Assembly: GCA_964017155.1 (NCBI GenBank) | Contig: OZ024862.1 | Span: forward strand, 44,954,462-45,018,461 | DNA length: 64,000 nucleotides | From: Oasisia sp. SBJ-2009 | Lineage: Eukaryota > Annelida > Polychaeta > Sabellida > Siboglinidae | Reading direction: 5' to 3' | Part shown: one piece after another, positions 35,112 to 60,968 of the stretch | How the letters are laid out: each line of letters begins with the position of its first letter | How positions within the stretch are numbered: the stretch's first letter is position 1 | Notes under the pieces: generated by a model | Seen by the model: only the letters and a program-made list of their open reading frames with translations | Databases searched by the model: none | Told to the model about the DNA's origin: nothing | Position numbers and translations under genes: made by a program

Positions 35112-35284
35112 GGTTGTCCCTGTTCTGGACGCATGCGCAGAAGGTTGATCTGACGCTCGGTGACGTTGCACGGCTGCTCTGCGTGAAACCGGCGGCGCTG
35201 TGCAACATGGGGAACAGGAAAGCCGCCATTAAAGTCGGGTATGACGCCGATTTCGTCATCTGGGATCCGGAGAGTACGTTCAAG
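35112..35284 (+). CDS. Allantoinase exon (n-1), copy 1
   Basis: After acceptor TTTCTCCTTAG the frame reads GLSLFWTHAQKVDLTLGDVA, RLLCVKPAALCNMGNRKAAI and KVGYDADFVIWDPESTFK, then donor AAG|GTAGGC, phase 0. The Gly is completed by the last base of the previous exon, confirming the join. The G.DAD.V.WDP motif is the beta-sandwich segment typical of allantoinase and dihydropyrimidinase relatives; the exact wording is closest to allantoinase as I know it. Confidence 0.9.
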
Positions 35285-36149
35285 GTAGGCAACGATGGCT
35301 GACGTTTCGACGTGGGGTACAACTTGATTTTGTGCAGACGAAACATCGCGACAATAACAGTCCCGTTCCCATCTTCTGCTATATGCTTTTGTTGCTTTAT
35401 GATGCACACTCACACGTGTACGCACACGTACGTGTACGCACACGTACATGTACACGCATACTCACGCACGTAAGCGCGCTCTCGCACTCTGTATTAAAGA
35501 TTAATGACAAAAGGAGGCTCCATGTAATGCAATCATTTACCTTACCTTAGAATACCTTACCTTAGGACGGTTCTGATCGTAGGATGCTGAGTTCCTTCCT
35601 CGGTGATCAGCTCTTCGTTTTCGTAATCTAGTAATATGACGTCGCGCGTTCCGGTTCTATTGTTAATTATTCTTAACGGTACTTCAAAATCATACACAAT
35701 ATTCTGGGTATACAAGAATTTGTCTAGTCATTTGACTTTCTACCGTCGAGGATAAGCGCGAATATGGCCAAACACATCCGCAATCAAAGTATCAATTATT
35801 TGTTATCTTACATGTTGAACCGAGTATCATCCAGCACAAGAACAAGGTCGGTGTTACTATGTTACGATCTACTTAATAAAACAATTAAACTATTCGTCAT
35901 GAACGTAATTAAAGTAATAAGGACTATGACAGCTAAACGAGTAATTATGATATAGCGTTATGCGTGTAATTGTGCCAAGTACTACTGTTAATTGATCAAC
36001 TGCAAATATCTTAAAGTAACCGTAAATATAAAGAACGTCCACGTTTTTTATGTAAGCCAAATTGTATGAAAGCGTGGGAAGTGGCTAATTAACATGCATA
36101 GTTAATCAGCAAGTAACATACTTCGTGTAATGTTTGTAAGGACAGTGTT

Positions 36150-36304
36150 GATTGTTTGTTTGATATTATTTGTTTGTTTGTTTGTGTGTGTGTGTTTGTT
36201 TGTTTGTTTGTTTGTTTGTTTGTGTGTTTGTTTGTTTGTTTGTTTGTTTGTTTGTTTCTTTGTTTCTTTGTTTCTTTGTTTCTTTGTTTCTTTGTTTGTT
36301 TATA
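36150..36304 (+). repeat. (TTTG)n/(TTTC)n microsatellite, copy 1
   Basis: Tetranucleotide tract just upstream of the last allantoinase exon; pure (TTTG)n with one variant in copy 2 (43291-43402). Confidence 0.9.
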
Positions 36305-36311
36305 TGTGTAG

Positions 36312-36449
36312 GTGACACCATACGCCGGTGAGATTCTACGAGGTGTAGTTCAACGGACGGTCGTAGCAGGCGAGACTGTCTTCGAGAACGGGGCAATATC
36401 CGATTCACCCAAAGGGCGGCTAGTCTTTCCGAAGCAGATCGAGATCTGA
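36312..36449 (+). CDS. Allantoinase last exon, copy 1
   Basis: Acceptor TATGTGTAG precedes VTPYAGEILRGVVQRTVVAG, ETVFENGAISDSPKGR, LVFPKQIEI and TGA at 36447-36449. This matches the C terminus of allantoinase (TPY.G..L.G.V..T.V.G..V). Phase 0 agrees with the previous donor. Together the three exons give 148 residues, about a third of the usual enzyme length of 450-480. Intact frame and splice sites in this copy; whether it is expressed depends on 5' exons not seen here. Confidence 0.88.
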   Translation: MTPYAGEILRGVVQRTVVAGETVFENGAISDSPKGRLVFPKQIEI

Positions 36450-36585
36450 CACTGTAAATAGGATCTATCAATATAGCACGTAATGAGGCATATTTTCGAT
36501 TTATTTGACTTAGGTCTAGTTGACTAATATTGCCGTTTACGTGGTGTTTGCTATTTTTCTCGTATATATAAGAAACTACAAGTGT

Positions 36586-36740
36586 GTAGTAGCGTTGGCA
36601 CTGGCTAGAGCTTCGGACTGTCGACAAAGAGAATCCTGGGTCGAATTATGGCACTCTACATTGCTCCAGTTCACTCAGCTATATGAATGAGTATCCGACA
36701 ATATTATGTATGTAAATACAGTGGTAGATATGTGTATAAG
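36586..36740 (+). mobile_element. tRNA-derived SINE, copy 1
   Basis: GTAGCGTTGGCACTGGCTAGAGC resembles an A box region (GTGGCTAGAGC) and CCTGGGTCGAATTATG a B box. The tRNA-unrelated body follows with TCTACATTGCTCCAGTTCAC and TATATGAATGAGTATCC. A related copy in opposite orientation at 63565-63738 shares both parts, which shows it is an interspersed repeat. It lies just after the allantoinase stop codon. Confidence 0.7.
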
Positions 36741-37246
36741 AATAGTCTTCGCCCATTAATTTAATATGGATGCATTCCAGAGAAGCCAAAATGGTGTTCG
36801 GTTAAACAGGATTACAGTTTATACCAAACAATTCTCATATATGAGTATTTTCTTATGGGATTACTTAGCATATACATTATAATTTGAAAGATAATGGTTG
36901 ATACAAAATCAACTACCCGGTTTCTACTCGAAGTCGCTATATTGAAAAATGAATAATTGGACATATGTTGTGTACGCAGTTATAGGCATGTTTAGTGGGG
37001 CTTAGTGCAGATTGTGTTTGATATAAGCTTGGGCAAGGGTAGGGTCTTCGGAGACATTCAATTAGCATTGATCGGTTTTCATCGTTACATTTCCGTGACT
37101 TGAAAAATTACGGCAAACAAAAGCAAGTACCACCACTAGGCTAAGTACTTCTATCCGTTTAATCGAGTCATAAACTACCCTGTATATAAGAGTAGTGCCG
37201 CTCTTTGCGTTATATTTCGCGACATGGTAGCCAGCGACTCCATCCT

Positions 37247-37254: not shown

Positions 37255-37443
37255 GAAATTAGCATTCCGTTGCCTTGTGGGATAGCACAACCGGACACGT
37301 GGGGTATTATGGGCAATCTAGATATGCTTACGTCATCGATCATTACTGTCGTGTTTTGTTAAATCACGCACCCGCTGACGTCACTAATTTAGGGTTTACT
37401 CAAGAATATTTCCGCTACTATACCACAATAACCAAGAACAATT

Positions 37444-39186
37444 ATGCATCGCCAGCACCTGAGAGCTGCGTTAGTCGCGAAAATAAGTAATGTAATCGCT
37501 GCGCCGATGGCCCTAATACTGGTTCTTGTGTCAATCTACTGTATAAGGGCTGGACAAATTGGTGGTCGTTACAGACGACTTTCCAAGTTTTCGCTAAAGT
37601 GCTTGAATGGAGGAACGTGTAAGCTTAGTTCTAACGGGACAGCGTATTGCCAGTGTCCGCGAGGAACTGATCTCCCGCTTTGCCACAACGTAACGGTTTG
37701 GTCGGCTGGAAAAAACGCAACGCAATCCACAACTTCACAGCCTCAGCTTGGCGCTTCCTGTGCGGTTGACAGGTTAGGTTCTGATTCCCCTTGCTCACTC
37801 TCCGCGAGACACAAACATCCCTGGTGGAGGGTACATCTGGGATTAGTGCTGGCAGTTCGGCGAGTGCAACTAGAGACGAAGGATTCTGCAAATGTTTCTT
37901 TTGTGGATGTTAAAGTTGGCATGTACCGCGGCGTGTACGGGTTGTGTGAGTACTCAGACAATGTTCGTTTCGTTGGAAGATATTACGATTGTCATAACCA
38001 TTTAGGAGACGTCGTGACGTTAATAGTAGAACGTGAAAATGAAATGCAGTTGTCGTTGTGCGAAGTGTCCGTTTATGGAGAACCTCATCTAGGCTCCCCG
38101 TGTTGGAGCAATCCCAGCGGTAATGGGGGAAGTTGCAAGCCAGACGGATGTTATTATACGTGTGTCTGCCCAAAGAGTTCGTCTGGAACAAACTGCGAAG
38201 GAAAGAATTGGGCATACCATGCAGTCACCTTGATGCGAATGGCTTACTACGATATACCACAAACTGTTGATAATACTGTTGATGGAAATAGAGAAGATAT
38301 GATGAGGCATGGCAATGATAACCTATGTTCAGCATCCACGTTATTTAAAGATCCATGGTATGTGCTTAGTTGTTCTGCCTGGATCGAAATACGACAGATT
38401 TTAATAGTGAATCGCCAGGATTGTTGTTCATCGTATATGTATAATTTCGATGTTTTAATTAACGAAGACAAGCTATGTGGAGCCAGGCGACATAACATGT
38501 CAGGTGTTGCATGGAAATATATCTGGTGTGTTCCTGTTGCTATAGGAAAAATGGTGAACATTACGTTTTACGGTCTTCGGGTCATTTCTTTGTGCGAAGT
38601 GGATATATATGGTGTCCCAATGCCATGTCGGAGCAATCCATGCAATAATGGAAAAACGTGTCGCCGAATTGGGAACAAAAATTCTTATGAATGTCTCTGC
38701 CCACCTGGTTTCAATGGTTCTAACTGCACTGATGCAATTCCATGCTGGAGTACACCGTGTCACAATGGCGGCTCCTGCCGAAATACCAAAATGCGGAACG
38801 TCTATCAGTGCTTCTGTCCTGGTAACACGACGGGTTCAAATTGTGAAGATTTCAAGCCATGCTGGAGCAATCCGTGTCACAATGGTGGCTCTTGCCGAAA
38901 TACTGAAATGTCGAACGTCTATCAGTGCTTCTGTCCTGGGAACACGACGGGTTCAAATTGTGACGATTTCATGCCATGCTGGAGCAATCCGTGCGACAAC
39001 GGTGGCACTTGCACGGAGAACGATTCTTCTTACACGTGTAAATGCTCGTCGAAATGGACAGGAACAAATTGCAGTCTAGTGAAAGATCTTACTAAAGAAC
39101 AAAAGGAAGTAAAACAAAAGCCTAAAGAACAAAATGAAGTAAATAAAACAACTAAAGAAACAAAACGAAGTAAAACAAAAGCCTAA
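37444..39186 (+). CDS. EGF-repeat protein with two fucolectin-like domains
   Basis: A single-exon 580-residue frame. The N terminus has a hydrophobic stretch, residues 19-33 (AAPMALILVLVSIYC), likely a signal peptide or anchor. In order: EGF 1 (about 53-81), a galactose-binding-like domain of the fucolectin/tachylectin-4 type (84-212, VWSAGKNATQSTTSQPQL, then WWRVHLG and ending LCEVSVYGE), EGF 2 (220-252), a second such domain (254-391, DIPQTVDNTVDGN, DPWYVL, ending LCEVDIYG), and EGF 3-6 (394-544, PCWSNPCHNGGSC type). A Lys/Gln linker follows and the frame ends at TAA 39184. Such domains suggest extracellular carbohydrate or ligand binding. Compared with copy 1, a 61-bp insertion in the linker shifts the frame just before the membrane helix, so the product would be secreted, or the gene is damaged. 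Confidence 0.85.
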   Translation: MHRQHLRAALVAKISNVIAAPMALILVLVSIYCIRAGQIGGRYRRLSKFSLKCLNGGTCKLSSNGTAYCQCPRGTDLPLCHNVTVWSAGKNATQSTTSQPQLGASCAVDRLGSDSPCSLSARHKHPWWRVHLGLVLAVRRVQLETKDSANVSFVDVKVGMYRGVYGLCEYSDNVRFVGRYYDCHNHLGDVVTLIVERENEMQLSLCEVSVYGEPHLGSPCWSNPSGNGGSCKPDGCYYTCVCPKSSSGTNCEGKNWAYHAVTLMRMAYYDIPQTVDNTVDGNREDMMRHGNDNLCSASTLFKDPWYVLSCSAWIEIRQILIVNRQDCCSSYMYNFDVLINEDKLCGARRHNMSGVAWKYIWCVPVAIGKMVNITFYGLRVISLCEVDIYGVPMPCRSNPCNNGKTCRRIGNKNSYECLCPPGFNGSNCTDAIPCWSTPCHNGGSCRNTKMRNVYQCFCPGNTTGSNCEDFKPCWSNPCHNGGSCRNTEMSNVYQCFCPGNTTGSNCDDFMPCWSNPCDNGGTCTENDSSYTCKCSSKWTGTNCSLVKDLTKEQKEVKQKPKEQNEVNKTTKETKRSKTKA

Positions 39187-39454
39187 AGAACAAAAGAAAG
39201 TAACGGGGATGTCTGCGATGATGAAGGTGATTATCGGTACGGCGGTTGGTATAGGCGTTGTTGTTGCTGCAGGGTGTGGCGTAGCTGCCTGTGGTGCGTG
39301 TCCGACTAAAAGAGATATAGCAGCAAAATTGGCAGCCGCCAGGGGAATGAAATCAGTAAGATCGAGAGTACAGAGAAGCACGGAGTTAGGAGACGACGAT
39401 GAACAGGAAGATGAAGCGGAAGATGAAGAGGAAGATGCGGTGTCATCGATTTGA
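39187..39454 (+). pseudogene. Out-of-frame membrane segment and acidic tail of the EGF gene
   Basis: In the next frame, from ATG 39209, lies KVIIGTAVGIGVVVAAGCGV, the same membrane helix as in copy 1, followed by TKRDIAAKLAAARG and an acidic tail (DDDEQEDEAEDEEEDAVSSI) to TGA 39452-39454. The linker upstream holds an extra repeat of ACTAAAGAACAAAA.GAAGTA plus one additional A after GAA (near 39150), so the helix is not in frame with the EGF repeats. An intron or assembly error could restore it; no donor and acceptor pair was evident. Confidence 0.8.
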
Positions 39455-39821
39455 GACTATATTGCAGGATCATTTCTTTAGCTATGATTTCGCAGACAAC
39501 AAAGCTTCAAAACAGGCCTATCTAATGGTGTATATGTATTTATTATAAAACCTGCTGTACAAATGATTTTGTGACGTGAATTGTACATTACCCGTACAGC
39601 TGCAGACAGGCCACACTTTACTGTCAGTGACCGTAACAGTTTGAAGTTGCCCAAACGTCTGCCAAAGAGTGCAACACCGTGGAAATTAATCAATGAAATG
39701 CTTTGCGTTTTGTTTTGAATTCATTGTTTTACAAGTGGATAAAGAAAGGTGACAGAAGGACAGGAACTGGGCGGACTTTGAATGATTAAAAGCGTTTCCG
39801 GAGACAAACTACTAGAAGACA

Positions 39822-39827
39822 AATAAA
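39822..39827 (+). terminator. Poly(A) signal AATAAA, copy 2
   Basis: AATAAA 368 bases after the acidic-tail stop; conserved with copy 1. Confidence 0.5.
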
Positions 39828-40407
39828 ATTGATATATCTATCGATTCTTTATGTTAGTAAATGTGTTCGTTTTTGAAATGTACAAGTGCATAGTATTCAA
39901 CATGGATAATAACACATTGACGTTGTCAAAAACACTCATTTGAATTACCCGTTATGCTTGTCAAAACATGATTAAATCACCGGTGTTCTTTCATGCCTCA
40001 CGAGACATGACGTTCATTGTAACACACAGTAAAAAAAACCTGTATATCTCTGCACAAAAGTCGACCTAGCGTCGTGTTCAACATATAGAAAGCACGCACC
40101 GTCTGTTTTCTCTTCTACCACTGAGACTCACGTAGTAGCAGTTGTCTGCAAAAGATTATATGACTAGACGACAACAATAATGTTTTGGTACAATTAAGCA
40201 ACACTTGAGATTCAAAGCAAATCCCATAAAGCAAGTGAATTCAGAAGAATGGTTTATCAAGCGTGCGAGTATTGAAGGATGAATAATAAAGGTAACTATT
40301 CTTTGCTTCGAGACGTCACACAATGCACAGCAAGTGACACACAATTAACACAGGCAGACACATTACACAAATAAACACCTACTAATCTGTGCATCAACTT
40401 ATTATTC

Positions 40408-40560
40408 ACTACACCTGGATCGCCATACCTGGATTGTCACACCTGGATCACCACACCTGGATCACCACACCTGGATCACACACTTGGATCACCACACCTG
40501 GATCACACACCTGGATCACCACACCTGGATCACCACACCTAGATCACCACACCTGGATCA
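40408..40560 (+). repeat. 14-bp minisatellite, copy 2
   Basis: Same CACACCTGGATCAC units as at 33296-33476 with about two fewer repeats. Confidence 0.9.
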
Positions 40561-40658
40561 CCCTATGGAAACTGACTGCTAAGCCATTGACGTGATGTCG
40601 CCTCTGTCTGAGAGCTTGAGACACTGTTGTATTCATTCCGTCCCGCTGCCCATAGGAG

Positions 40659-40794
40659 CGGCTGTGGCAGGCGCTGAAGGACGGAGACATCGACATGGTG
40701 GTGAGCGACCATTTCCCCTGCACGGCCGACCTCAAGCTCATGGAAGCCGGCTACTTCCTGCAGGCGTGGGGCGGCATCGCCTCGCTGCAGTTCG
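40659..40794 (+). pseudogene. Allantoinase exon (n-2), copy 2, donor lost
   Basis: Encodes the same segment as 33565-33700 ([20 protein letters not shown]) with substitutions including Asp to Tyr in EAGDF and Val to Ala in QVWG. The splice donor, TTCG|GTAGGT in copy 1, reads TTCG|CTAGGT here (40795), so the invariant GT is gone. The acceptor side reads CATAGGAG instead of CATGGGAG. The exon therefore cannot be joined normally to 42288, and copy 2 is probably a pseudogene. Confidence 0.82.
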
Positions 40795-41459
40795 CTAGGT
40801 CACTAGAAGGAGGCGGACTATCTCTCCCATATGAAACAACTCCAAGCGTTATTACGAATACGAATACATTTATTTCAGGTAAAAGAAAACATATACACTA
40901 TGTACATACACACCCATAGTCTCTAAAAGGTAAATATGTTAAACAATGAGTAGATAAAATTAAATAAGGTTATCCGTTAGATAAGTGTAAAAGTGTAGTA
41001 TACCAGATACAAAAAATAATGATCAATATGTCTGATTGTATAGTAAATATGAATTTATACATTTAGATAAACACAATTTGAAAATAAAAAAGTTAAAAGG
41101 TGAATGGATAAAATAAATAAATTGGTAAGTTGTATAAACAAAACTAATAAAAACACATTTGGAAGACATTATATGTGTCTTACTAGTGTACAGTATTAAA
41201 TAAACAAATAAACGCGCCAACCTAATGATAACAATCATCATAATGTCTTACCAAGTGCTGAATACAATCCTTTGTTCTGACTAAAGCGCTGAACAAAATG
41301 TTCATAACTGTATGGCACCGATATAAATATAAAAAAGCTATTTTTTAAAAGATGCGTCTTAAGCACCATCTTAGACGAAAAGTTAGTGTCACACTGTTTG
41401 ACTGACGTCAGCATATTGTTCGACAGTAGAGGGACCACATTAGCGAAAGCTCGTTTTCC

Positions 41460-41552
41460 GAACTATTTATATGTATGTACACACCCGTTAACGGGACGGG
41501 ACATACGTCCCGGATTTGATGGTGACAAAATAAAGTTTTATTATTATTATTG
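41460..41552 (+). mobile_element. LINE 3'-end insertion present only in copy 2
   Basis: About 90 bases absent from copy 1: a CGGGACATACGTCCCG hairpin, then GATGGTGACAAAATAAAG and TTTTATTATTATTATT. A hairpin followed by AATAAA and an ATT tail is the usual 3' end of an L2/CR1-type LINE. This is therefore a strongly 5'-truncated insertion that postdates the duplication, replacing about three bases of the target. Confidence 0.75.
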
Positions 41553-42287
41553 AAGCGTGTGGGTGGCACTTTTAAGAGACCAGCCGAATTTGTGAGACTA
41601 TTCGAAAGAAGCTCGGATACATATTGCGGTGCAAGTCCGTGGAGTGCCTAGAATGTAACCAAGATAATTTTTAAACGAAATTCCGACTTGGATTAGTAAC
41701 CAATGCATGCAATATTGGTGTTATGTGTTCGTTCTTGATATTTCGCGTCATCAGACGAGCAATATTGTTCTGAATTATATCCAATGGTATCACAGTTTGT
41801 CAAAAACATTTATCCGCCCGTTTATCTTTTCAACTTGCGAGATTTCTTAATTGTGTAGTCTTCTTAGACTGAACCAAGAAACCGACAATGAATTGCGATT
41901 TATTTTAGCATAGTATCCGCCATCCCTTGGCATTGTTTTAATTGCCATTATATCATACAATAACAGCGAATATGTTTAGAATCATTTGAACTCATGTTTG
42001 GGTAACATGAAATTGATAATTTATTTTGCTTGGTAGTTTCACGACTACTAAACTACATAAAACATTCCACAAGCGAGCTACCATGTTGCTATCGATACTG
42101 CCAAAGGCTAAGTTGGCTCATTCGCAAAATGAATTTGAAATAAGACAATTGAAAAAAATCTTCAATCTGCCCTAGCTTAAAACATACCTGCCGTAGTCAC
42201 GCAGAACCAATGGAAAAGTTCCAGTGATGGAATTACGACAGTGCACTTAAAGAGCAATGTAAAATTCATGTTACATTTTCTCCTTAG

Positions 42288-42460
42288 GGTTGTCCCTGTT
42301 CTGGACGCATGCGCAGAAGGTTGATCTGACGCTCGGTGACGTTGCACGGCTGCTCTGCGTGAAACCGGCGGCGCTGTGCAGCATGGGGAACAGGAAAGGC
42401 GCCATTAAAGTCGGATGTGACGCCGATTTCGTCCTCTGGGATCCGGAGAGTACGTTCAAG
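42288..42460 (+). pseudogene. Allantoinase exon (n-1), copy 2
   Basis: Same acceptor and donor as in copy 1. It encodes LSLFWTHAQKVDLTLGDVA, CVKPAALCSMGNRKGAIKVG and CDADFVLWDPESTFK. Changes against copy 1 include Asn to Ser, Ala to Gly, Tyr to Cys in GYDAD, and Ile to Leu. The frame is intact but the upstream donor is lost, so it is listed as part of a broken gene. Confidence 0.82.
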
Positions 42461-43290
42461 GTAGGCAACGATGGCTGACGTTTCGACGTGGGGTACAACT
42501 TGATTTTGTGCAGACGAAACATCGCGACAATAACAGTCCCGTTCCCATATTCTGCTATATGCTTTTGTTGCTTTATGATGCACACTCACACATGTACGCA
42601 CACGTACACGCATACTCACGCACGTAAGCGCTCTCGCACTCTGTATTAAAGATTAATGACAAAAGGAGGCTCCATTTAATGCAATCATTTACCTTACCTT
42701 AGAATACCTTCCCTTAGGACGGTTCTGATCGTAGGATGCTGGGTTCCTTCCTCTGTGATCAGTTCTTCGTTTTCGTAATCTAGTAATATAACATCGCGTG
42801 TTCCGGTTCTATTGTTAATTATTCTTAACGGTACTTCAAAATCATACACAATATTCTGGGAATACCAGAATTTGTCTAGTCATTTGACTTTCTACCGTCG
42901 AAGATAAGCGCGAATATGGCCAAACACATCCGCAATCAAAGTATCAATTATTTGTTTTCTTACAGGTTGAACCGAGTATCATCCAGCACAAGAACACGGT
43001 CGGTGTTACTATGTTACGATCTATTTAATAATAAAATTAAACTGTTCATCTTGAACATTATTAAAATAATAACAGCTAAACGAGTAATTATAATATAGCT
43101 GTATGCGTCTAATTGTGCCATGTACGACTGTTAAATTGATCAACTGCAAATATCTTAAAGTAACTGTAAATATTAAGAACGTCCACGTTTTTAAGTAAGC
43201 CAAATTGTTTGAAAGCGTGGGAAGTGGCTAATTAACATTTAATAGTTAAACAGCAAGTAACATACTTCGTGTAATGTTTGTAAGGACAGT

Positions 43291-43402
43291 GTTGATTGTT
43301 TGTTTGATATTATTTGTTTGTTTGTTTGTTTGTTTGCTTGTTTGTTTGTTTGTTTGTTTGTTTGTTTGTTTGTTTGTTTGTTTGTTTGTTTGTTTGTTTG
43401 TA
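43291..43402 (+). repeat. (TTTG)n microsatellite, copy 2
   Basis: TTTG tetramers immediately upstream of the last allantoinase exon. Confidence 0.9.
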
Positions 43403-43409
43403 TGTGTAG

Positions 43410-43547
43410 GTGACACCATACGCCGGTGAGATTCTACGAGGTGTAGTTCAACGGACGGTCGTAGCAGGCGAGACTGTCTTCGAGAACGGGGCAATATCCG
43501 ATTCACCCAAAGGGCGGCTAGTCTTTCCGAAGCAGATCGAGATCTGA
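43410..43547 (+). pseudogene. Allantoinase last exon, copy 2
   Basis: Identical in protein to copy 1 (VTPYAGEILRGVVQRTVVAG to FPKQIEI, TGA at 43545-43547) with intact acceptor TATGTGTAG. Its identity compared with the changed upstream exons may reflect recent duplication more than selection. Confidence 0.82.
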
Positions 43548-43683
43548 CACTGTAAATAGGATCTATCAATATAGCACGTAATGAGGCATATTTTCGATTT
43601 ATTTGACTTTGGTCTAGTTGACTAATATTGCCGTTTACGTGGTGTTTGCTATTTTTCTCGTATATATAAGAAACTACAAGTGT

Positions 43684-43840
43684 GTAGTAGCGTTGGCACT
43701 GGCTAGAGCTTCGGACTGTCGACAAAGAGAATCCGGGGTCGAATTATGGCACTCTACATTGCTCCAGTTCACTCAGCTATATGAATGAGTATCCGACAAT
43801 ATTATTTATGTAAACACAGTGGTAGATATGTGTATAAGAA
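43684..43840 (+). mobile_element. tRNA-derived SINE, copy 2
   Basis: Duplicate of the SINE at 36586 carried along by the segmental duplication; the B-box region reads CCGGGGTCGAATTATG. Confidence 0.7.
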
Positions 43841-44298
43841 TAGTCTTCGCCCATTAATTTAATATGGATGCTTTCCAGAGAAGCCAAAATGGTGTTCGGT
43901 TAAACAGGATTAAAGTTTATACCAAACAATTCTCATATATGAGTATTTTCTTATGGGATTACTTAGCATATACATTATAACTTGAAAGATAATGGTTGAT
44001 ACAAAATCAACTACCCGGTTTCTACTCGAAGTCGCTATATTGAAAAATGAATAATTGGACATATGTTGTGTACGCAGTCATAGGCATGTTTAGGGGGGCT
44101 TGGTGCAGATTGTGTTTGATATAAGCTTGGGCAAGGGTATGGTCTTCGGAGACATTCAATTAGCATTGAGCGGTTTTCATCGTTAAATTTCCGTGACTTG
44201 AAAAATTACGGCAAACAAAAGCAAGTACCACCACTAGGCTAAGTACTTCTATCCGTTTAATCGAGTCATAAGCTACCCTGTATATAAGGGTAGTGACG

Positions 44299-44470
44299 CT
44301 GTCGCGCTTACATTTTTCCGATCGTTAAAACCTTTCCGATTGACGTTTCTGCGCATGCGCGTATCTAGGGGATAAACGTAAGCGCTACCTACGATGGTCG
44401 CGCTTACATTTTTCCGACCGTTAAAAACGTTCCGATTGACGTTTCTGCGCATGCGCGCATCTAGAGGCGC
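44299..44470 (+). repeat. Two 96-bp tandem units with TGCGCATGCGCG cores
   Basis: GTCGCGCTTACATTTTTCCG begins units at about 44302 and 44398. Each contains GATTGACGTTTCTGCGCATG and the NRF1-like TGCGCATGCGCG at 44350-44361 and 44446-44457. Located right at the end of the segmental duplication; GC-rich, possibly a promoter or a dispersed repeat. Confidence 0.6.
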
Positions 44471-45095
44471 GCGCGTCAGAGCTAGCTAGCAACGAAGGTT
44501 GATGCTCACAAGTATTTGGGAGTTTGAGCGTTATAGCTCGGACTAATTGGACCAGTGCCAGCGGATAACAAAGCGCTGTCACGGGTTACGATTAATCGTG
44601 CTAGGATTTACTGCTACATATTTAGTAAATAAAAATATAGTAGTATACAAAGCTCTATTGTTTATTTATCCTTAATAGTAATTGGATGGATAAATAAATA
44701 GTAGCACCAAGTTTGGCATAACAAAGTTTTGTAATTTGTTGTGTATTAAGTGGATTAAATTTGCATTTAACGCGTACAAGGGCAGACAGTAATTACTTAT
44801 ATATTATAATAGTTTATTTCACTCTGGGCAATCATACATATTGAAATAGCTACCTAAAACATGCAAAGTATATTTGTTAAAATATATTGTAATAATAATA
44901 TATAATTGAAGACATTAGCATAAATATAAAATGTATTAAAATGTAGAGAATATAGTAAATGTATCTATAAAACACATTTAAATTATATTTAAATCATTAA
45001 AACATATTTTCTGTGATTATTTGACTAAACTTATTAAAAAATTATTAATACTTTAAAACATTAAAATAAATAGATCTAAAGAATAAATTAAGGCT
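44471..45095. other. No gene recognised
   Basis: AT-rich non-coding sequence. Confidence 0.45.
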
Positions 45096-45326
45096 TTACA
45101 ATATTTTACACATATCCATATCAGCATGCAGAAAAGTGGTTAGGAGTCGCTGTGAGTTCTTTTGGTTGGACAGGCACCAGTTTATAAAAGAGTTCTTGGA
45201 CCTGTTGGTTTTTACTCTGGGTAAAGATCGAATATTGAGTATGGCATCGTGTATTGTAGTCCTTGGTTTTGGTAGTAGTTCATGCAGTGTGTGCTGCGGC
45301 TCTTCGATTTGTGTGAAGATTAACAA
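45096..45326 (-). pseudogene. Possible LINE C-terminal remnant
   Basis: A 76-codon minus-strand frame with RSLPRVKTNRSKNSFINWCL, which resembles the (R)TNR...NSFIPW.I..WN stretch near the C terminus of LINE reverse transcriptases. Nothing else of the element is visible; weak assignment. Confidence 0.25.
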
Positions 45327-45797
45327 TATTTATATTATATAGTGACCAGTTTCCTCTAGTCTATGTTTAAATGCTTAAAGACATTACTGAAGTAACATGA
45401 AATGTATTTGTTACATTTATTAAAATAACATCATGATCAACGTCTTACCTTCAGGAGTAAATGTAAAAAGATAATGTTATTTATGTTCAGTGATGTTTTG
45501 TTGAAATGAATCCTTACTGATATTTTATTGTATTCTAAATTTACTTCGTGAATAAGCCTGTAGGAGTTGTGTGTAAGTGAAAATGTTGATGTCCTCTATA
45601 AATACTATAAATAGCACATCATGTTATTGTTTTAATAATGGCCTTTAAGTCTAATATGAACATAACTGGACCTAATACAATTCTTTGTGGTATAACTCAT
45701 GTGGCCGCCATTACGTCTGAACTGGATTGATTAGACAAACACTGTTGCCTAGTTCATTACAGAAGCACAGTAGACAACACTCCTCATTCAATAACAA

Positions 45798-45803
45798 TTT
45801 ATT
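45798..45803 (-). terminator. Poly(A) signal of the C48-PHD gene
   Basis: AATAAA on the minus strand, 58 bases after the stop codon at 45861. Confidence 0.5.
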
Positions 45804-45860
45804 GTAAAAATTAAAATAATCCCAATCTCTCTTGTGTGGCTGTGGCTGACTTCTCCTGTT

Positions 45861-46121
45861 CTACTGCAGTCGCACAGTGCAGTATTTGCAGTGGAACACT
45901 GACGGCTTCGTGGTGACCTCGGCACACTGACAGTGCCACCATGTGAAGCAGTTGTCACATGCCACCCAGTCTGTGCTGTCTCTGTGGTGCTGGCAGGTGG
46001 GGTTGCAATAGTTATTGCGGTCCTGGTCTACCAGTCGGGCGGTGACATAGGTTCTGTACCCGGAAGCCTGGGCTTGGCCCATCACACCTACTGGCACATC
46101 CTTTGCCAAAGCCTCAGCATT
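45861..46121 (-). CDS. C48-PHD gene, last exon (C terminus of peptidase, PHD-like finger)
   Basis: Acceptor ATTGTAG, then NAEALAKDVPVGVMG, which continues the helix after the catalytic Cys (GIFVLM in the previous exon; phase 0 join). Residues further on form a Cys/His-rich zinc finger: NYCNPTCQHHRDSTDWVACD, NCFTWWHCQCAEVTT and FHCKYCTVRLQ, ending at TAG 45861-45863. Spacing with W(V)xCDxCxxWWHxxC and a final CxxC is that of a PHD-type finger, a module that commonly reads histone tails. Ulp1-like peptidase plus PHD is a combination I associate with invertebrate lineage-specific or transposon-related genes; that is inference. Confidence 0.8.
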   Translation of the reverse strand, partial: NAEALAKDVPVGVMGQAQASGYRTYVTARLVDQDRNNYCNPTCQHHRDSTDWVACDNCFTWWHCQCAEVTTKPSVFHCKYCTVRLQ

Positions 46122-46491
46122 CTACAATAATAATTTGTTTTATTTAATACTAAGTTTAATGATGCTATAGTAAATTATTGTGTTATGCATGATCTGAGTT
46201 GTTAGCACATTTCTAACATCGGCTCAAGGCTAGAGATGCACCAGAGAAATTATCTTGGACAATTGTATTTACTTGGTACTAGTAATCAAAGTACTTGATG
46301 ATTACTTATCAATTTGAAATGTATCAGGGTTATATTATAGTAATACAACATATGATATTTCAGTATCAGTTCGCATGCAGGGCAGGAACTAACCAACTGG
46401 TAACATTAACTAAGCCAGATCACACATATGAAAATGATTATGATTAAATAAGAAATTGTGCAAAGACTTATTTCTCATCACAAAGGCTTAC

Positions 46492-46612
46492 CATCAATAC
46501 AAATATACCACAGCTTGACCCATCAGCTTGGTGTCTACTTGTCATTTCCGAGGTTTGCCAGTCTGCCACCAGTTCGGGTTCAATAACCTTTGACCTCATC
46601 TTCATGTAGCTC
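46492..46612 (-). CDS. C48-PHD gene, exon with catalytic Gln and Cys
   Basis: Reads SYMKMRSKVIEPELVADWQT, SEMTSRHQADGSSCGIFVLM, with donor ATG|GTAAGC. Q.DG.SCG is the oxyanion Gln and nucleophile Cys motif of Ulp1/SENP (C48) peptidases, which cleave SUMO or related ubiquitin-like modifiers. The first base completes the Lys of the previous exon, and the donor is phase 0, so both junctions fit. Confidence 0.85.
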
Positions 46613-46763
46613 CTTCAGTGAAAAGGTCATAGAAACACAGTCATGTTAGAAGGTTGCAGATACATATGACTTCAACTCAAAACTATTTTACATGCACATT
46701 GTTTCTTAAAACACAAACACTCACTGAGTGAGTGAGTGAGAGTGAATGAGTGATCAGTTTGTG

Positions 46764-47035
46764 TTATGTCGGGTCGGGTCGGGTCGGGGCGGGTCGGGTC
46801 GGGTCGGGTCGGGTCGGGTCGGGTCGGGTCGGGTCGGGTCGGGTCGGGTCGGTCGGTCGGTCGGTCGGTCGGTCGGTGTGCGTGTGTGCGTGTGTGCGTG
46901 TGTGCGTGTGTGCGTGTGTGCGTGTGTGCGTGTGTGCGTGTGTGCGCGTGTGCGCGTGTGCGCGTGCGTGCGTTCGTGTGTGTGCGTGTGTGGTGGTGTG
47001 TGGTGGTGTGTGTGTGCCCACGTGTGTATGAGTGC
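46764..47035. repeat. (GGGTC)n, (GGTC)n and (GTGTGC)n microsatellite
   Basis: About 18 units of GGGTC, then seven of GGTC, then (GTGTGC)n with variants, inside an intron of the C48-PHD gene. All six frames are open only because the unit sizes lack stops. Confidence 0.95.
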
Positions 47036-47080
47036 ATGCTGGTAATTTACTCAGCAAGTATTGCATAAATCAGTATTCAC

Positions 47081-47274
47081 TTCCAGCCATCAATGAATGT
47101 AGCGCTGTCCTTGTCATACTTTGGCGATCTCAGTGAACTCAGGACCCCCACTTGTCGGCGCTGCATGTTCGCCACCAGGAGCACCCAGTGCTCCCCAGCA
47201 TCAACGTGCAGTGGGTTCGTTGAAGCATAACTGCACACTGGCACGACCACATGCTTGAAGCTGGACAAGTGTAC
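47081..47274 (-). CDS. C48-PHD gene, exon with catalytic His
   Basis: Acceptor TTTCAG, then VHLSSFKHVVVPVCSY, AGEHWVLLVANMQRRQVGVL and SSLRSPKYDKDSATFIDGWK. HWVLLVAN carries the catalytic His of the family. About 15 residues later the family normally has Asp-Ser-Leu; here the text is Ser-Ser-Leu, so the catalytic Asp seems to be Ser. The exon ends in phase 2 at TGGAA|GTGAAT. A long microsatellite separates it from the next exon. Confidence 0.85.
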
Positions 47275-47531
47275 CTGAAATGCATGATCACTTTATAGTA
47301 AGAGTTGTGTAAGTAAAATTAACTTACAAGTAAACATGTGTTGATATATTATCACAAAAGTTAGTGCAGTAGTGGGAAATTTAAATACACTTAGTGGAAG
47401 ATATAAATAGTATAACTGGTGCAATCTTAATTACCATTACAATGCTAATTATCAAACACATAAATTACTAATTGTTTATGCATAAGAAAATAAATATTTG
47501 CTTTGTTTGATAATAAATAATAATTAATTAC

Positions 47532-47651
47532 TTTCTCGAACATCCATTCGTGGCTTGTGTTAGCCGCCCACTTCAAGGCGAGGTGACTTGGCAGGTTAAA
47601 CAGCTCTCCTGGGTTCTCCTTGGCAACCATGGAGAGATAGCCATTCACCAC
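47532..47651 (-). CDS. C48-PHD gene, exon
   Basis: Reads VVNGYLSMVAKENPGELF, NLPSHLALKWAANTSHEWMF and EK, phase 0 at both ends (TTACAG acceptor, AAA|GTAATT donor). With the preceding exon it gives WLNDNVVNGYL, the characteristic start of the Ulp1 fold, where W.ND...N.Y is conserved. Confidence 0.85.
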
Positions 47652-48077
47652 CTGTAAGGAAATGCAATTATTTCTGATTAATTTATCATTCAATATAATT
47701 ATAAAGGGCCGATCTTATATATGTTCTACTGTGATGTCTGTAGAAGTGTCTGCTGCAGCTTTGTAAAGACGTGGCTCACATATCACCACCATTTGTATAA
47801 TAACTAACAATATTACAATTATTCCATTGATTGTAAATACACAGTAGTGGAACTTTCAATATGCTGTAACATGATTCAATATATATGAAATATTTTATTT
47901 GTTACCTAGATTATCTCAATGTTGTATCTATTATCTACAACTGACATTAATTAATAACCTTAGTTATAAAATTGGAGATATGATAAAACCATATTGGTTT
48001 AGTTAATATAACAACATAAATATGACATGTTCAATATATACACGTATATGGAACAATATTATGCATGCTGTACTTAC

Positions 48078-48668
48078 ATTGTCATTGAGCCAGTGTTTCG
48101 GCTTTAGTGTGCTCATGTCCTCGTTACTCAGCGTGTAGTTGCCAACTACAAGGCGCTGGCCGGCAGGAACACCATCACTTGCTGTCATGGACAGATGACT
48201 TGGTTTGACAGAAAGCGTGTCTATGAGGTCATCAGGATGCTCCATCATGCCAAACCTCACCGACAGCACCAACATGGCTGATGTGATGTCGTAGGCATCC
48301 ATGCTACATCCAGGGTACTTGGCTATCAGTTCACACGCAAGATTGGGGTAACTGTCATCCTGCTCATTCATGTCACTCAGGAGTGCACTGACTGGATTGG
48401 TCATCCGTTGGCGGAAGAAATGTGCCATGTTCCCTGGGATAAACTTGGCTACGGTGCATTTGGATGCTGCCTTCAGCACACGCATCACTGACCTCTGTGA
48501 GAATTCGGACAGGGACACTGGTGGAGAACTCACATCCATCGGCTCTGTGCTCAGTGTCTGGTGCTTGGCAGCCTCGGGAGCTGGTGACACAAGAGGTTTT
48601 GTGCGATTCAGTCGAATCAGTGTCTTTGTCCTTCTTGGTCGCGGAGCTGCTGGACCGACCTCAGTGAT
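48078..48668 (-). CDS. C48-PHD gene, large exon (N-terminal region and start of peptidase)
   Basis: 197 codons between acceptor TGTCTTTCAG and donor AAT|GTAAGT. Begins ITEVGPAAPRPRRTKTLIRL, a basic Pro/Arg/Lys-rich region. A less conserved region (FSQRSVMRVLKAASKCTVAK, HFFRQRMTNPVSALLSDMNE) is followed by GNYTLSNEDMSTLKPKHWLN, the entry of the peptidase domain. Function of the middle part unknown. An alternative frame end 75 bases past the donor is intron read-through. Confidence 0.85.
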
Positions 48669-48732
48669 CTGAAAGACAAATATCACCTAAACTTAGAACA
48701 AATACTACACATTTGCCAAATATATTCGTCAC

Positions 48733-48825
48733 CTTTCTCATCTTTCCAAGTCTCCTTGTCTGGCGTGGTGGTGTGGCAGGTCTCTTCCACATCCTTCTGT
48801 CCAAAACCCACACTCCTCCACCCAT
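48733..48825 (-). CDS. C48-PHD gene, probable upstream exon
   Basis: ATG at 48825 opens MGGGVWVLDRRMWKRPATP, PRQTRRLGKMRK with donor AAG|GTGACG in phase 0, compatible with the acceptor at 48668 and with the same basic composition (RRL, KMRK then PRPRRTK). It could be the first coding exon or continue from an acceptor GGCAG just upstream. Only the short intron and phase support it. Confidence 0.5.
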
Positions 48826-48879
48826 CCTGCCTTAACATATTTCCCCACTATGTCTACTAGGTTTCTAGCTCATATCTCA

Positions 48880-48911
48880 CCACCACCCTCATGCCCTGCA
48901 TGAGGGTGGTG

Positions 48912-48915
<4 letters not shown>
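48880..48915. repeat. Short hairpin CACCACCACCCTCATG
   Basis: CACCACCACCCTCATG, spacer CCCTG, then CATGAGGGTGGTGGTG: a perfect 16-bp stem that abuts the (TA)n tract at 48917. Confidence 0.85.
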
Positions 48916-48916
<1 letters not shown>

Positions 48917-48983
<67 letters not shown>

Positions 48984-49060
48984 TATAATATATATGTATA
49001 TGTAATATATGTATATATATATAATATATATATATGTATATATAATATATATACGTATAC

Positions 49061-49095: not shown

Positions 49096-52762
<3,667 letters not shown>

Positions 52763-54113
52763 TAATAATAATAATAACTTCTTTTGCGCCAATATCCTCG
52801 AAAATCAAGCTCAGTGGCGCGACAAAACCAAGGGATTAGGCAAACGTCAATGGATGGATGAAGAAGCTAGGAGGTAAGGAGGGTAGGCAGCATTAAAGAA
52901 ATAGGTTTTTAGACGTCGGCGGAATGAAACTATATTGCCTTCTGATTTTACACTGACAGGAAGCGAATTCCACACCGTTGGTGCGGCAACCGAGAAAGCT
53001 CGGGTCCCGGCTTTCGTTTTCACCCGAGGGATGTAAAGAGGGTTACTACTGGTTGAGCGTGGCTGTCTGGAATTTCTTGCTGGAGTTAGCATTGAATTTA
53101 GATATGCTGGTTGTGTAGATGAGAGTGCTTGATAGGCTATTATACAAATTTTGAAAATGATGCGATAGTGCACAGGTAGCCAATGCAGTTATTTCAGAAG
53201 CGGCACTGAGCGAGAGAAACAAGGAGAACGCGTGATTACCCTGGCTAAACAGTTTTGGACCCGCTGAAGTTTTGCTATGTCCTTGTTTGTGATATTGAAA
53301 AGGAGGGAATTGCAGTAGTCAAGTCTGCTGCTTACTAGAGCTGTGGCGAGATGGTTTTAGCAACAGAAAGTGTTATAAACCGGCGGATGCGGCGAAGATC
53401 ACGGATATGGTAAAAACAGCAAAGACATGTTTTCGAGATATGTTGTTTGAAATTGAAGTTTTCATCAAACGTTACTCCAAGGTTTAAAGCTGAGGCGGCT
53501 GGTGTGATAATCTGACTCAGAATATGTGTCGGGAAAAAGTCACTGAGTTTTGCCCGCTGCGTTGGGGTACCAATGATGAGAAATTCGGTTTTATCTGCGT
53601 TTAGCATTAATTTGCTGTTTTTCATCCAAAGGGAGACATCTTGGAGACAATCCCTGAGCTGGTTTAGGGAGCGACAAGTATCTGATGTGGTCAAAGAAAC
53701 ATAGATTTGTGTGTCATCTGCATAAAGGTGATGATCCAGGTTGTGTCTCTGGATAACAGAGCTTAGTGGTGTTGTATAGAGAGTGAAAAGCAACGGCCCC
53801 AAAACAGAACCCAGGGGGACACCACAAGAGGTGGGCAGCATGTCTGAGAAGCAGTTACCTATTTTAATGGCTTGCCGTCTGTCAGTAAGGTATGAAGTAA
53901 ACAAGCTCAAGGCTGTGCCAGATATCCCGTATCACGTTGATAAGCGTGTAATGAGAATGTCGTGGTCAATGGTGTCGAAAGCAGCGGATAGGTCACGCAG
54001 GGTCAGTGCAGTAACTTTGCCATTATCAATGTTAAGGTTTATGTCATTGTGTACTTTTAGAAGAGCAGTTTCTGTAGAGTGAAATTGTTTATATGCAGAC
54101 TGTTTAAACCATT

Positions 54114-54254: not shown

Positions 54255-54314
54255 CTTGTAAACTTCATCAGGTACATCCTCATCATCTGCAGCTGCGTCT
54301 GGTGAAGTTTCCAT
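54255..54314 (-). CDS. Possible first exon, acidic peptide, maybe of the C48-PHD gene
   Basis: ATG at 54314 followed by METSPDAAADDEDVPDEVYK and donor AAG|GTAGAT, phase 0. Coding-like composition and a good donor, in the right orientation 5.4 kb upstream of the next exon candidates, with two LINE insertions between. Linking it to the same gene is inference. Confidence 0.35.
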
Positions 54315-54646
54315 GGTAACGTGTGCTGTTGGCAGAAACAGGTGATACAACACGTGTACAAATAGGGGGACATTATTTGTGGTGCAGCATAGAAATTAAA
54401 ATACAATATTACTCATTCAACGTTATCTGAAAAGACATATATGCCAGTCATACTAATGTAACATATTTCAAAAGAAGAAACACTGAAAGAGTTTTTGCCT
54501 TACTAGAGTACAAGCAATATGTATATTAGTAATATAGTAATATTACAAGAATTCCAATAATTAGTAACTTGCACACAAAACACAAGTTTATGTTCAATAC
54601 ACATTGATGCACACTTAATGGGGCTGGTGGCCTGCTGTGGTGACTT

Positions 54647-54733
<87 letters not shown>

Positions 54734-55198
54734 TCCTAAAGGCAGCTTATGTCGACCGATTAAGCATATAGGACGGGCTTATGTAGACCGCTGTTTTATG
54801 TAGACCAAAAAAACTGGTCTACATAAGGATTCGACGTGTTAGTTCACAACTAACACAATTTAATTTATCAGTACCATTGCTTGTCCACACAGTTCATATG
54901 ACAGTGAAGTACTGTGCGTAATTAATTTTTAAATGAACAACAATTTAAGTGATTTTGAGCATGTTTTTTCCAGCGTCGTGCATATTTTTGAGTATATTGT
55001 GTGCGGGCATATGTAGACCGGCTCAAAGTTCTTATAAATCTATATTTATGGTATATACCGAACGAAGGGTTGGAGTTTTGTGTTCTGTGTATGATATACT
55101 TCATACTGATGCAAAATGCTATATTATTATGTGTAAATTAGTAATTTGCATTTTGTCTTTGTTGCGAACCGATAGATCCCTCGAATATTGGCTTTGTC
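54315..55198. other. No gene; (TA)n and TATGTAGACC repeats
   Basis: (TA)n at 54650-54732, followed by TTATGT.GACCG motifs at about 54748, 54780 and 54796, an inverted copy GGTCTACATAA at 54817, and another near 55010. No coding support. Confidence 0.6.
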
Positions 55199-55206
55199 GT
55201 TGGTAC

Positions 55207-57459
<2,253 letters not shown>

Positions 57460-57466
57460 TTGGTAC

Positions 57467-58420
57467 TCGGCAACTCATTTTACAGCATTCACTAAATTGT
57501 TAAATACAATGTACACACATTCACCATCAAAAACCTGTTAACGTAGTTAATCACATGTATGCATTGCTTTTGTTAATATGTAGTTAGATAATCATGTGAA
57601 ATTTAATGAAGTTTTACGTGATGTGCCGTAAAGCGGCAACCACTTTTCGTTGGCGTTGGCGGTGCCGGTGGCGTTGAAGTTTTTCTTCATCAGACAAGTT
57701 ATTGAAGTGCAGTACATCTTTCTCAGAAAGTAAGTACTTTGAAAATTACTACTGCATAATTACAACAACTAGTAGGCCTACATAGTATGTTGTGTGGATA
57801 TTCCAAAAAACAGTATAATTGCTTAACAATGAGAGACGTCTGGGATATTCGGCGTGACATGCTAGAATTGGGGGCACAGGTATTTCGTGTTGTAAGCAAT
57901 TAATCTTTCATAACAGCTTAAACATGTGATGCAATATTTTAGACAATACGCCTTACATATAAAGCCCACACTTATCTTACGGACGAATTTGATAAGCGTT
58001 TAGAAAAAATAGAAAATTAATTGGACTTCACGAATGACACGATTATTGGCTATACCAGTACCGATAGCCGCCTTCAAGCCTTAGGCATTAGACTTGAAAT
58101 GTCATGAGCCGTGCAAGTCGTCGTCGATGATGCAAACCGGTGCATCTTTTAGGCATCGAAGGTGCGCTAAGATACATTATGTTGTAACATTACATTTTTA
58201 TATTGATTGATGAATATTAAAACGCACTGAGCTTTCAAACAACAGCATAGGAGCATATAAGCCTAAAAAGGCTGCCTAAGGCTAAGCCTAAGGAAGGTGT
58301 ACACCTATTCACAAAAGTCACATGTCACTGGGTTACAACAAAATGAAATTTAACCCACAACAATATATTTTGTGTATACAATTAAGATATTTATGGAAAT
58401 TTGTCTTGCATATGTTACAG
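57467..58420 (+). other. Upstream part of a possible gene; weak small exons
   Basis: A GC-richer patch GGCGTTGGCGGTGCCGGTGG at about 57647-57667. MRDVWDIRRDMLELGAQ lies at about 57801-57851 before a GTATTT donor-like site. A frame after ATATTTTAG (about 57942) reads TIRLTYKAHTYLTDEFDKRL, EKIEN and stops. These could be 5' exons of the gene below, but I could not make their phase fit the acceptor at 58421. Confidence 0.25.
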
Positions 58421-58497
58421 AGTCAGAGGCACCAGTACTGAACGTAACCATGTCAGATACAAAGAAGACAGTGCCTCTGAGAAGAGGCCAAGAGATG
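58421..58497 (+). CDS. Unknown gene, exon a
   Basis: Between acceptor TATGTTACAG and donor GAT G|GTACGG. In the frame compatible with later exons it reads VRGTSTERNHVRYKEDSAS, EKRPRD, a charged peptide. It enters in phase 2 and leaves in phase 1, matching exon b. Function unknown. Confidence 0.45.
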
Positions 58498-58731
58498 GTA
58501 CGGTTACTGTCACCAATAAATTTATAGTACATTTCAGTGAAAGCATTCTGAAGACATTTTGCGACCGATACCCATAGACATAATTTCATTCCATGGAAAT
58601 AAATAACCAGGCTACAGTGTAATCACTACACATTTTTGGCAATTTACTAAACGAGTTTGAGATCAAATAAAATTCAGCAACTTTAAAACAAAATGTTAAA
58701 TATGTTTATGCTGGATTGCTGGTGTTGTATG

Positions 58732-59714
58732 CAGACATGGGGTCAAATACATTGAAATGTATTTAAATACAAATACAAATACTTTTGAGGGATTCAAATA
58801 CAAATACAAATACTTTTAAATGCAAATGTAGTTAAATACAAATACTTTTGAAAAGTATTTCAAATACTTTTTCAAATGCTTTTCATTTTCAGGATATATT
58901 ACTATATAGGTAAAAGAAACAAAACGATATATGAAGCAGTTCATCTAGTTTATTGCTATTGTCTAAGTTGTCTGGTTACATTCAATGGTCTAGTATCTAT
59001 CTGCCCAGTGTATACTTCTAAAATTGTCAGTTATATCACCCAGGATGGTGGAAGTTAGTACTTATATGGGATAGTGCAAAGTCCTGCTGCAAGCTAATTG
59101 AATGCAATGTTCCTTTTAATCATTCATCCACACCCTTTTCACACAATCATGGCAATGTGGACAGAACCCACAGCCAAGCTTTCCATTCATTCACTGAGGA
59201 TCACTTAACAAGATCTGACTTGAATTGGGTTCTCCATTTATCATCTGTATCAATTAGGCTGCCCTGCACACTGGGCTCAGTGATGTTTGAACAAAGTCCA
59301 CTGTGGCTTATTTAATTGGGGATACCTGGCTTGAACAAAGGGCTTGATAAACCAAGCCAGGCTTCTTCCTCTATCACACAAAGGGAATTGGCTAGCTAGC
59401 TGGTGCCCAGGGTTTACTGGTGCCCATATGTGCTAAGCTGTGTAATTAAGTTCTTAGTCCCTGACTGTCACTGATATCACATTGGCTAATTTACCATAGC
59501 AGTAACTTACATAAACACAGTGAAAGAAAGAACTGACCCAAATATATACCCAAAGTATTTGAAAAAGTATTTGAAAAGTATTTGAAATATCAAATACTTT
59601 AGGAAAGTATTTAAATACAAATACTTTCAATTCCTAAATGTCAAATACAAATACTTAAAAAAAGTATTTAAATACTTTCAAATACAAATACAAATGTATT
59701 TGACCCCATGTCTG
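58732..59714. mobile_element. hAT MITE (983 bp) with 8-bp target duplication
   Basis: Terminal inverted repeats CAGACATGGGGTCAAATACA at both ends, flanked by exact 8-bp repeats GTTGTATG (58724-58731 and 59715-59722). Both subterminal regions carry many AAATACAAATACTTT repeats in alternating orientation. The middle has no transposase. Termini, target-site length and structure identify the hAT superfamily. Confidence 0.9.
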
Positions 59715-59937
59715 GTTGTATGACCGTATGACTACTGTGGAATAATAATATGATGTGTCTCAGTAATCCAGTGTGATGTTGGTCTTCATTTTATATCTCC
59801 ATGTTTTTCTTTCAGTCCTCTGTTATTTACCCCATTGAGCCCTGCTCTCTACAATATACTTTTCCACTCCCTCTAAAAATTATTATTGCTTAACACTAGT
59901 TTAATAAATAAAATGACTTCTATCGTTTCTTTTACAG

Positions 59938-60901: not shown

Positions 60902-60968
60902 GTAACTTTGCATTTTGATTAAAAGAAACTAATGATCCTTCAAAAGAGCAGTTGATTTATTGATGACA

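What the first reader, a model, noticed from the sequence alone, without database searches (positions are those of the whole stretch)
45861..48668. Ulp1/SENP-like peptidase fused to a C-terminal PHD-like finger
Five exons with matching phases give WLNDN-VVNGYL, HWVLLVAN and Q.DG.SCG, then a PHD-type Cys/His cluster. A SUMO-type protease with its own chromatin-reading finger is unusual among standard SENPs and could be a lineage-specific or transposon-derived gene.
Basis: partly seen in the sequence, partly recalled or inferred. Interest (0 to 1): 0.75.

Follow-up and report, generated by a model that had tools for sequence, protein, structure and literature searches.

The report
SUMO-protease-like gene with PHD finger
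A predicted six-exon gene in this probably animal genome joins a SUMO-protease-type domain, with serine where the usual catalytic aspartate sits, to a PHD-type finger that likely reads histone marks; the same pair of domains is already in print for a Hydra jumping gene, so this is likely a stray or tamed relative of a known kind.

Summary
On the minus strand, exons 48668-48078, 47651-47532, 47274-47081, 46612-46492 and 46121-45861 join with GT-AG borders and matching phases into one open frame of 428 codons. It matches Peptidase_C48 (E 9.5e-13) and ends in a complete C4HC3 PHD-type ligand set, closest to the ASH1L PHD (exon alone, E 6.3e-5), although below Pfam's own PHD cut-off. The first exon is unresolved: two candidates.

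Two points change the reading. First, His286, Gln350 and Cys356 are kept, but Ser303 stands where Ulp1, SENP1 and SENP5 have the catalytic Asp, so full activity cannot be assumed. Second, a C-terminal Ulp1 plus PHD is already reported in the Ginger1-9_HM transposase of Hydra (PMC2836005), so the pair is not new. Here no transposase domain and no long terminal inverted repeats were found in the stretches scanned.

Most likely it is a transposon-related or captured Ulp1-PHD protein that would be tethered to H3K4-methylated chromatin. Origin, activity and expression are untested: the protein database search failed and the own-genome search did not complete.

The parts
54255..54314 (-). Candidate first coding exon a: ATG in ACCATGG context, 20 mostly acidic codons, donor AAG|GTAGAT, phase 0; intron 1 would be 5586 nt and contain two LINE-like stretches. 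Unresolved.
48733..48825 (-). Rival first coding exon b: 31 basic codons, donor AAG|GTGACG, phase 0, intron 64 nt. Unresolved; could be repeat-derived (not tested).
48078..48668 (-). Exon 2 (aa 21-217 of the 448-aa model): about 165 residues without a match in Pfam, NCBIfam or PDB sequences, then the start of the peptidase domain with WLND 213-216
47532..47651 (-). Exon 3 (aa 218-257), peptidase domain (VVNGYL...)
47081..47274 (-). Exon 4 (aa 258-321), peptidase domain: catalytic His286 (codon 47190-47188) and Ser303 (codon AGT, 47139-47137) at the place of the catalytic Asp
46492..46612 (-). Exon 5 (aa 322-362), peptidase domain: Gln350 (46530-46528) and nucleophile Cys356 (46512-46510)
45861..46121 (-). 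Exon 6 (aa 363-448 and stop): end of the peptidase domain, then C4HC3 PHD-type finger C401 C405 C417 C420 H425 C428 C440 C443, with Trp414 and Trp423 at predicted methyl-lysine cage positions

Best explanation
A predicted six-exon gene encodes a Ulp1/SENP-type (C48) domain followed by a PHD-type finger, and the protein would likely be held at methylated histone H3 by the finger and there is predicted to clip SUMO-like tags from nearby proteins, probably weakly because serine replaces the catalytic aspartate. The exon structure, the C48 match, the eight finger ligands and the Asp-to-Ser difference are read directly from the sequence and calls. Inferred: that the exons form one transcript; that Trp414 and Trp423 bind H3K4me2/3 as the equivalent Met and Trp of PHF23 do; that Cys356-His286 still works with Ser303 or as a dyad; and that the gene descends from a transposon-borne Ulp1-PHD cassette of the kind seen in Ginger1-9_HM, now without its transposase.
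For: Open, phase-matched five-exon frame with GT-AG borders and coding-like composition. Peptidase_C48 E 9.5e-13; PDB matches to yeast Ulp1 (1.7e-7), SENP1, SENP5 and SENP2 within aa 187-378. His286, Gln350 and Cys356 in register with Ulp1, SENP1 and SENP5. All eight C4HC3 ligands; the best PDB relatives of the finger include the PHDs of ASH1L, a KDM7 homolog, PHF13, PHF23, KDM5B and TAF3. In PHF23 the substitutions M353V and W362A abolish H3K4me3 binding (PMC7335091, passages); Trp414 and Trp423 have the same spacing of nine residues, and the PHF13 alignment places them on Met and Trp. Ser as third active-site residue has a published precedent in the papain-like fold, and dyads also occur (PMC10318531, passages). 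The Ulp1+PHD pair is reported in Ginger1-9_HM.
Against: Ser303 in place of Asp, against 3 of 3 reference chains aligned, may mean loss of activity or early decay. The finger is below Pfam's PHD cut-off, and its AlphaFold model without relatives was unusable (mean pLDDT 44). No transcript, no relative and no copy number: the search for homologous proteins failed five times and the genome search gave no answer in 15 tries (listed under Tried and rejected). No transposase domain or long terminal inverted repeats were found in the parts scanned, so the transposon origin rests on analogy.
Confidence: 0.45

Rival explanations
1. A transposon remnant or non-autonomous copy: the 3' part of a Ginger1-like (or Mutator-like) transposase gene of which only the Ulp1-PHD end survives, with no host function and in early decay, the Asp-to-Ser change being part of that decay.
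For: The domain pair is known at a transposase C-terminus; some Ginger1 transposase genes have 1 to 4 introns, nearly all GT-AG; Asp is absent; the window holds several LINE-type ORFs.
Against: No stop or frameshift in 428 codons over five exons; no DDE/integrase domain in the stretches scanned; no long terminal inverted repeats in the flanks compared; about 165 residues upstream of the peptidase domain match no known domain.
Confidence: 0.3
2. A pseudo-peptidase: the fold is kept as a SUMO- or ubiquitin-like-binding module that is recruited to chromatin by the finger, without cleavage.
For: The catalytic Asp is replaced by Ser with a codon (AGT) at least two base changes away from the Asp codons.
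Against: His286, Gln350 and Cys356 are all kept, which a pure binding module would not need; Ser in the third position and dyads are known in members of the fold (PMC10318531, passages).
Confidence: 0.2
3. Two neighbouring genes, or a pseudogene next to a finger gene, misjoined by the model.
For: There is no transcript evidence; the finger lies in the last exon only.
Against: Exon 6 also codes for the end of the peptidase domain: the C48 profile match runs to aa 385 and exon 6 starts at aa 363 in phase 0, so domain and finger share an exon.
Confidence: 0.05

Closest known systems
Ginger1-9_HM transposase (Hydra magnipapillata; PMC2836005, Mob DNA 2010)
   Same: Ulp1 (pfam02902) and PHD domains at the protein's C-terminus, in an animal, in a gene with 2 introns (Table 1).
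   Different: Ginger1 transposases begin with a Gypsy-like integrase of about 400 aa, and this family has 120-bp terminal inverted repeats; here no integrase domain and no such repeats were found in the parts scanned.
Ulp1 / SENP1, SENP2, SENP5 (Peptidase family C48)
   Same: WLND, His-Trp and Gln-x5-Cys in register with Ulp1, SENP1 and SENP5; E 1.7e-7 to Ulp1, SENP2 also matched.
   Different: Only 23-27% identity in the aligned domain; the catalytic Asp is Ser; a PHD-type finger follows the domain. That standard SENPs lack such a finger is recalled, not tested.
PHD fingers of ASH1L, PHF13/PHF23, KDM7 homolog, TAF3
   Same: C4HC3 ligands and a cage pair at the same spacing as PHF23 M353/W362.
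   Different: C-x3-C between the first two ligands; score below the Pfam PHD cut-off. The spacing typical of other PHDs is recalled.
Ulp1-type peptidases of oomycete Crypton transposons (PMC3212892, passages)
   Same: C48 peptidase borne by a mobile element.
   Different: No PHD mentioned (0 occurrences in that main text); different hosts and a tyrosine recombinase.

Membership tests
Peptidase family C48 (PF02902) | Pfam profile match above the curated cut-off | tested here: met
   48.9 bits against 20.7, E 9.5e-13, aa 278-385
Peptidase family C48 (PF02902) | Clan CE order His ... Gln ... Cys | tested here: met
   His286, Gln350, Cys356 in register with Ulp1, SENP1, SENP5; clan order as stated in PMC6759571 (passage)
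Peptidase family C48 (PF02902) | Catalytic Asp at His+17 (Ulp1 GYVDSL) | tested here: not met
   Ser303, codon AGT at 47139-47137; so filed as a C48-type domain, not as a proven peptidase. That this Asp is the catalytic one in Ulp1 is recalled.
PHD finger (C4HC3) | Eight zinc ligands in order C4-H-C3 | tested here: met
   C401, C405, C417, C420, H425, C428, C440, C443
PHD finger (C4HC3) | Pfam PF00628 above cut-off | tested here: not met
   12.5 bits against 24, E 0.15. Against this, the exon matches PDB PHD chains, best E 6.3e-5. Hence 'PHD-type'
PHD finger (C4HC3) | Two-zinc cross-brace fold | tested here: inconclusive
   Model of the exon alone had mean pLDDT 44
Ginger1 DNA transposon | Gypsy-like integrase with H2C2, DDE, GPY/F | tested here: not met
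   No such Pfam match at E<=0.1 in 54316-63999 (both strands, three frames each) nor in 41000-48999 (minus strand, three frames). Partial: the plus strand of 41-49 kb (but for one exon) and most of the minus strand of 49-54.3 kb were not scanned
Ginger1 DNA transposon | Terminal inverted repeats of about 40-270 bp with CCGG/CCGT target duplications | tested here: not met
   Between masked flanks 43.5-45.9 kb and 48.7-64 kb only 10 inverted exact 12-mers, the longest runs 13 nt; repeats broken every <12 nt or lying in masked stretches would be missed. Target duplications not tested, having no ends to test
Host SENP gene | Placement among SENPs in a phylogeny | not tested
   No animal or other eukaryotic relatives could be fetched

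The most novel reading that the evidence does not exclude
A transposon-borne Ulp1-PHD cassette has been tamed into a free-standing animal gene, giving a SUMO deconjugase that carries its own H3K4me3 reader and works with a Cys-His-Ser active site in place of Cys-His-Asp: a histone-mark-guided SUMO eraser made from a transposase tail.
Probability: 0.2. Interest if true: 0.7.

Novelty: new member of a known kind. Interest (0 to 1): 0.37.

Why it matters
If the gene is expressed and conserved, it would be a single-protein SUMO eraser aimed at one histone mark, and it would hint at what transposons gain from carrying Ulp1 with PHD. The Ginger authors suggest that these proteases act in transposition or the repair that follows (PMC2836005, passages); a free-standing copy would let that be tested without a transposase. 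If it is a decaying copy, it is only one more record of a known transposon domain pair.

Tried and rejected
The own-genome search for PF02902 was unanswered in all 15 tries, the last two after timed waits. Viral contigs: three scans, 102, 66 and 65 pattern matches, none a relative by tblastn. GTDB genomes: one scan, 12 pattern matches, none a relative; one with alignment A1 gave 5 distant bacterial C48-type loci among 78 pattern matches, not read further. A tblastn inside the window found no second copy, only a 12-residue match at E 8.8.

Rejected: a split into two genes (exon 6 holds the end of the peptidase domain and the finger). Not borne out: a transposon around the gene (no long terminal inverted repeats in the flanks compared; the 25 longest of 418 inverted pairs, the only ones shown, lie in AT-rich arrays). 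Rejected: 'the combination is new'. Structure: the finger exon alone folded to pLDDT 44, unusable, so no fold search was run.

Literature: 10 searches, several with capped lists (25 of 212 papers, 20 of 378, 12 of 233). Six papers were opened: PMC2836005 (passages and section 5), and passages only of PMC3212892, PMC4673829 (not used), PMC7335091, PMC10318531 and PMC6759571. Of these only PMC2836005 names Ulp1 and PHD in one transposon protein; other reports may exist outside what I saw.

Full report
WHAT IS THERE. On the minus strand five exons, 48668-48078, 47651-47532, 47274-47081, 46612-46492 and 46121-45861, join with GT-AG introns and matching phases into one open frame ending in TAG. Introns 2, 3 and 5 are AT-rich (GC 0.24-0.31) while the exons are at 0.45-0.56; codon-position GC of the six-exon model is 0.548/0.432/0.592, and its other two forward frames hold 32 and 26 stops. 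Intron 4 (GC 0.549) contains a (GTCGG)n array of 23 copies followed by a (GTGTGCGT)n array, which explains its high GC.

THE FIRST EXON IS OPEN. Two ATG-to-donor candidates in phase 0 with a good start context lie upstream: 54314-54255 (acidic, behind a 5586-nt intron that holds two LINE-like stretches) and 48825-48733 (basic, behind a 64-nt intron). In 200 locally shuffled controls the mean number of such candidates was 0.075, the most was 2, and 7% had at least one; so neither is obviously chance, but the control is crude and the filter was of my choosing. The model used for numbering has 448 aa with the first candidate; the alternative would have 459.

PEPTIDASE DOMAIN. Pfam Peptidase_C48, E 9.5e-13. 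PDB phmmer: yeast Ulp1 1.7e-7, SENP1 2.1e-7, SENP5 3.5e-7. In a four-row alignment with Ulp1, SENP1 and SENP5 (23-27% identity) WLND, His286-Trp287, Gln350 and Cys356-Gly357 are invariant. At His+17, where the three references have Asp, the window has Ser303 (codon AGT, 47139-47137). A survey of papain-like peptidases gives Asn, Gln, Asp or Glu as the usual third residue, mentions Ser there in one amidase effector, and lists dyads (PMC10318531, passages). Weakened rather than absent activity is therefore a fair inference, not a result.

FINGER. C401, C405, C417, C420, H425, C428, C440 and C443 make a complete C4HC3 set with a C-x3-C first pair. Pfam PHD gives 12.5 bits against a cut-off of 24. 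Of the 42 PDB sequences listed at E<=1 for the exon alone, the best is the ASH1L PHD at 6.3e-5, and the next include a KDM7 homolog, PHF13, PHF23, KDM5B and TAF3. Trp414 and Trp423 stand nine residues apart, as do PHF23 M353 and W362, whose mutation abolishes H3K4me3 binding (PMC7335091, passages); the PHF13 alignment puts them on Met and Trp. Reading of H3K4me2/3 is thus predicted, not shown. AlphaFold on the exon alone was unusable (mean pLDDT 44).

SURROUNDINGS. Residues 21 to about 185 match nothing in Pfam, NCBIfam or PDB sequences. No transposase domain was found in 54316-63999 on both strands or in 41000-48999 on the minus strand (two weak plus-strand hits below cut-off, gp37_trimer and DUF1072, look like chance). 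The plus strand of 41-49 kb, but for one exon, and most of the minus strand of 49-54.3 kb were not scanned; of intron 1 only the two LINE-type ORFs were. No long inverted repeats flank the gene once low-complexity arrays are masked. No second copy lies in the window.

WHAT IT WORKS LIKE, AND WHETHER IT BELONGS. It would work like a chromatin-tethered Ulp1-type enzyme or binder. It belongs to the C48 family by sequence, but the catalytic Asp test fails, so it is not filed as a proven peptidase. The finger is PHD-type. The closest published architecture that I found is Ginger1-9_HM of Hydra, Table 1 'Ulp1, PHD' (PMC2836005, section 5 read); its figure legend also speaks of an alignment of Ulp1 and PHD domains of Ginger1 and Mutator transposases, and the authors suggest a role in transposition or repair (passages). 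Oomycete Cryptons carry C48 peptidases too (PMC3212892, passages). It is not filed as a Ginger1 element: integrase and inverted repeats were looked for in part and not found.

LIMITS. Homologue and own-genome searches failed for technical reasons, so copy number, selection, orthology and the history of Ser303 are unknown. These are the facts that would separate a host gene from a remnant.

VERDICT. The Asp-to-Ser change and the apparent absence of a transposase are the two features worth following.

Noticed in passing
32019-37202 and 39151-44300: Tandem segmental duplication at about 94-96% identity in its two main blocks. The second copy holds an amidohydrolase-like C-terminal exon (42263-42475; allantoinase-like by recall) and adjoins an ORF with EGF and F5/8-type domains (37432-39183).
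   Followed up: partly
49393-52575: Uninterrupted 1060-aa plus-strand LINE-type ORF with endonuclease and reverse transcriptase matches, inside the putative first intron and opposite to the gene; a second RT fragment lies at 53335-53931 on the minus strand.
   Followed up: partly
46768-47016: A (GTCGG)n array of 23 copies runs directly into a (GTGTGCGT)n array inside intron 4.
   Followed up: no
24600-26870: Tandem repeats over C2H2 zinc-finger-like minus-strand ORFs that adjoin one another across in-frame stops at 25615 and 26200; only 26200-26817 was scanned with Pfam.
   Followed up: no
3736-5658 and 55205-57448: Two AT-rich blocks about 75-78% identical in inverted orientation, some 50 kb apart.
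   Followed up: no
44301-44371 and 44397-44467: Direct 71-nt repeat at 93% containing TTTCTGCGCATGCGCG, possibly a small mobile-element end.
   Followed up: no
14997-16001: RT-bearing ORF of which a short part matches ALKBH8_N above its Pfam cut-off, probably a LINE segment caught by that model.
   Followed up: no
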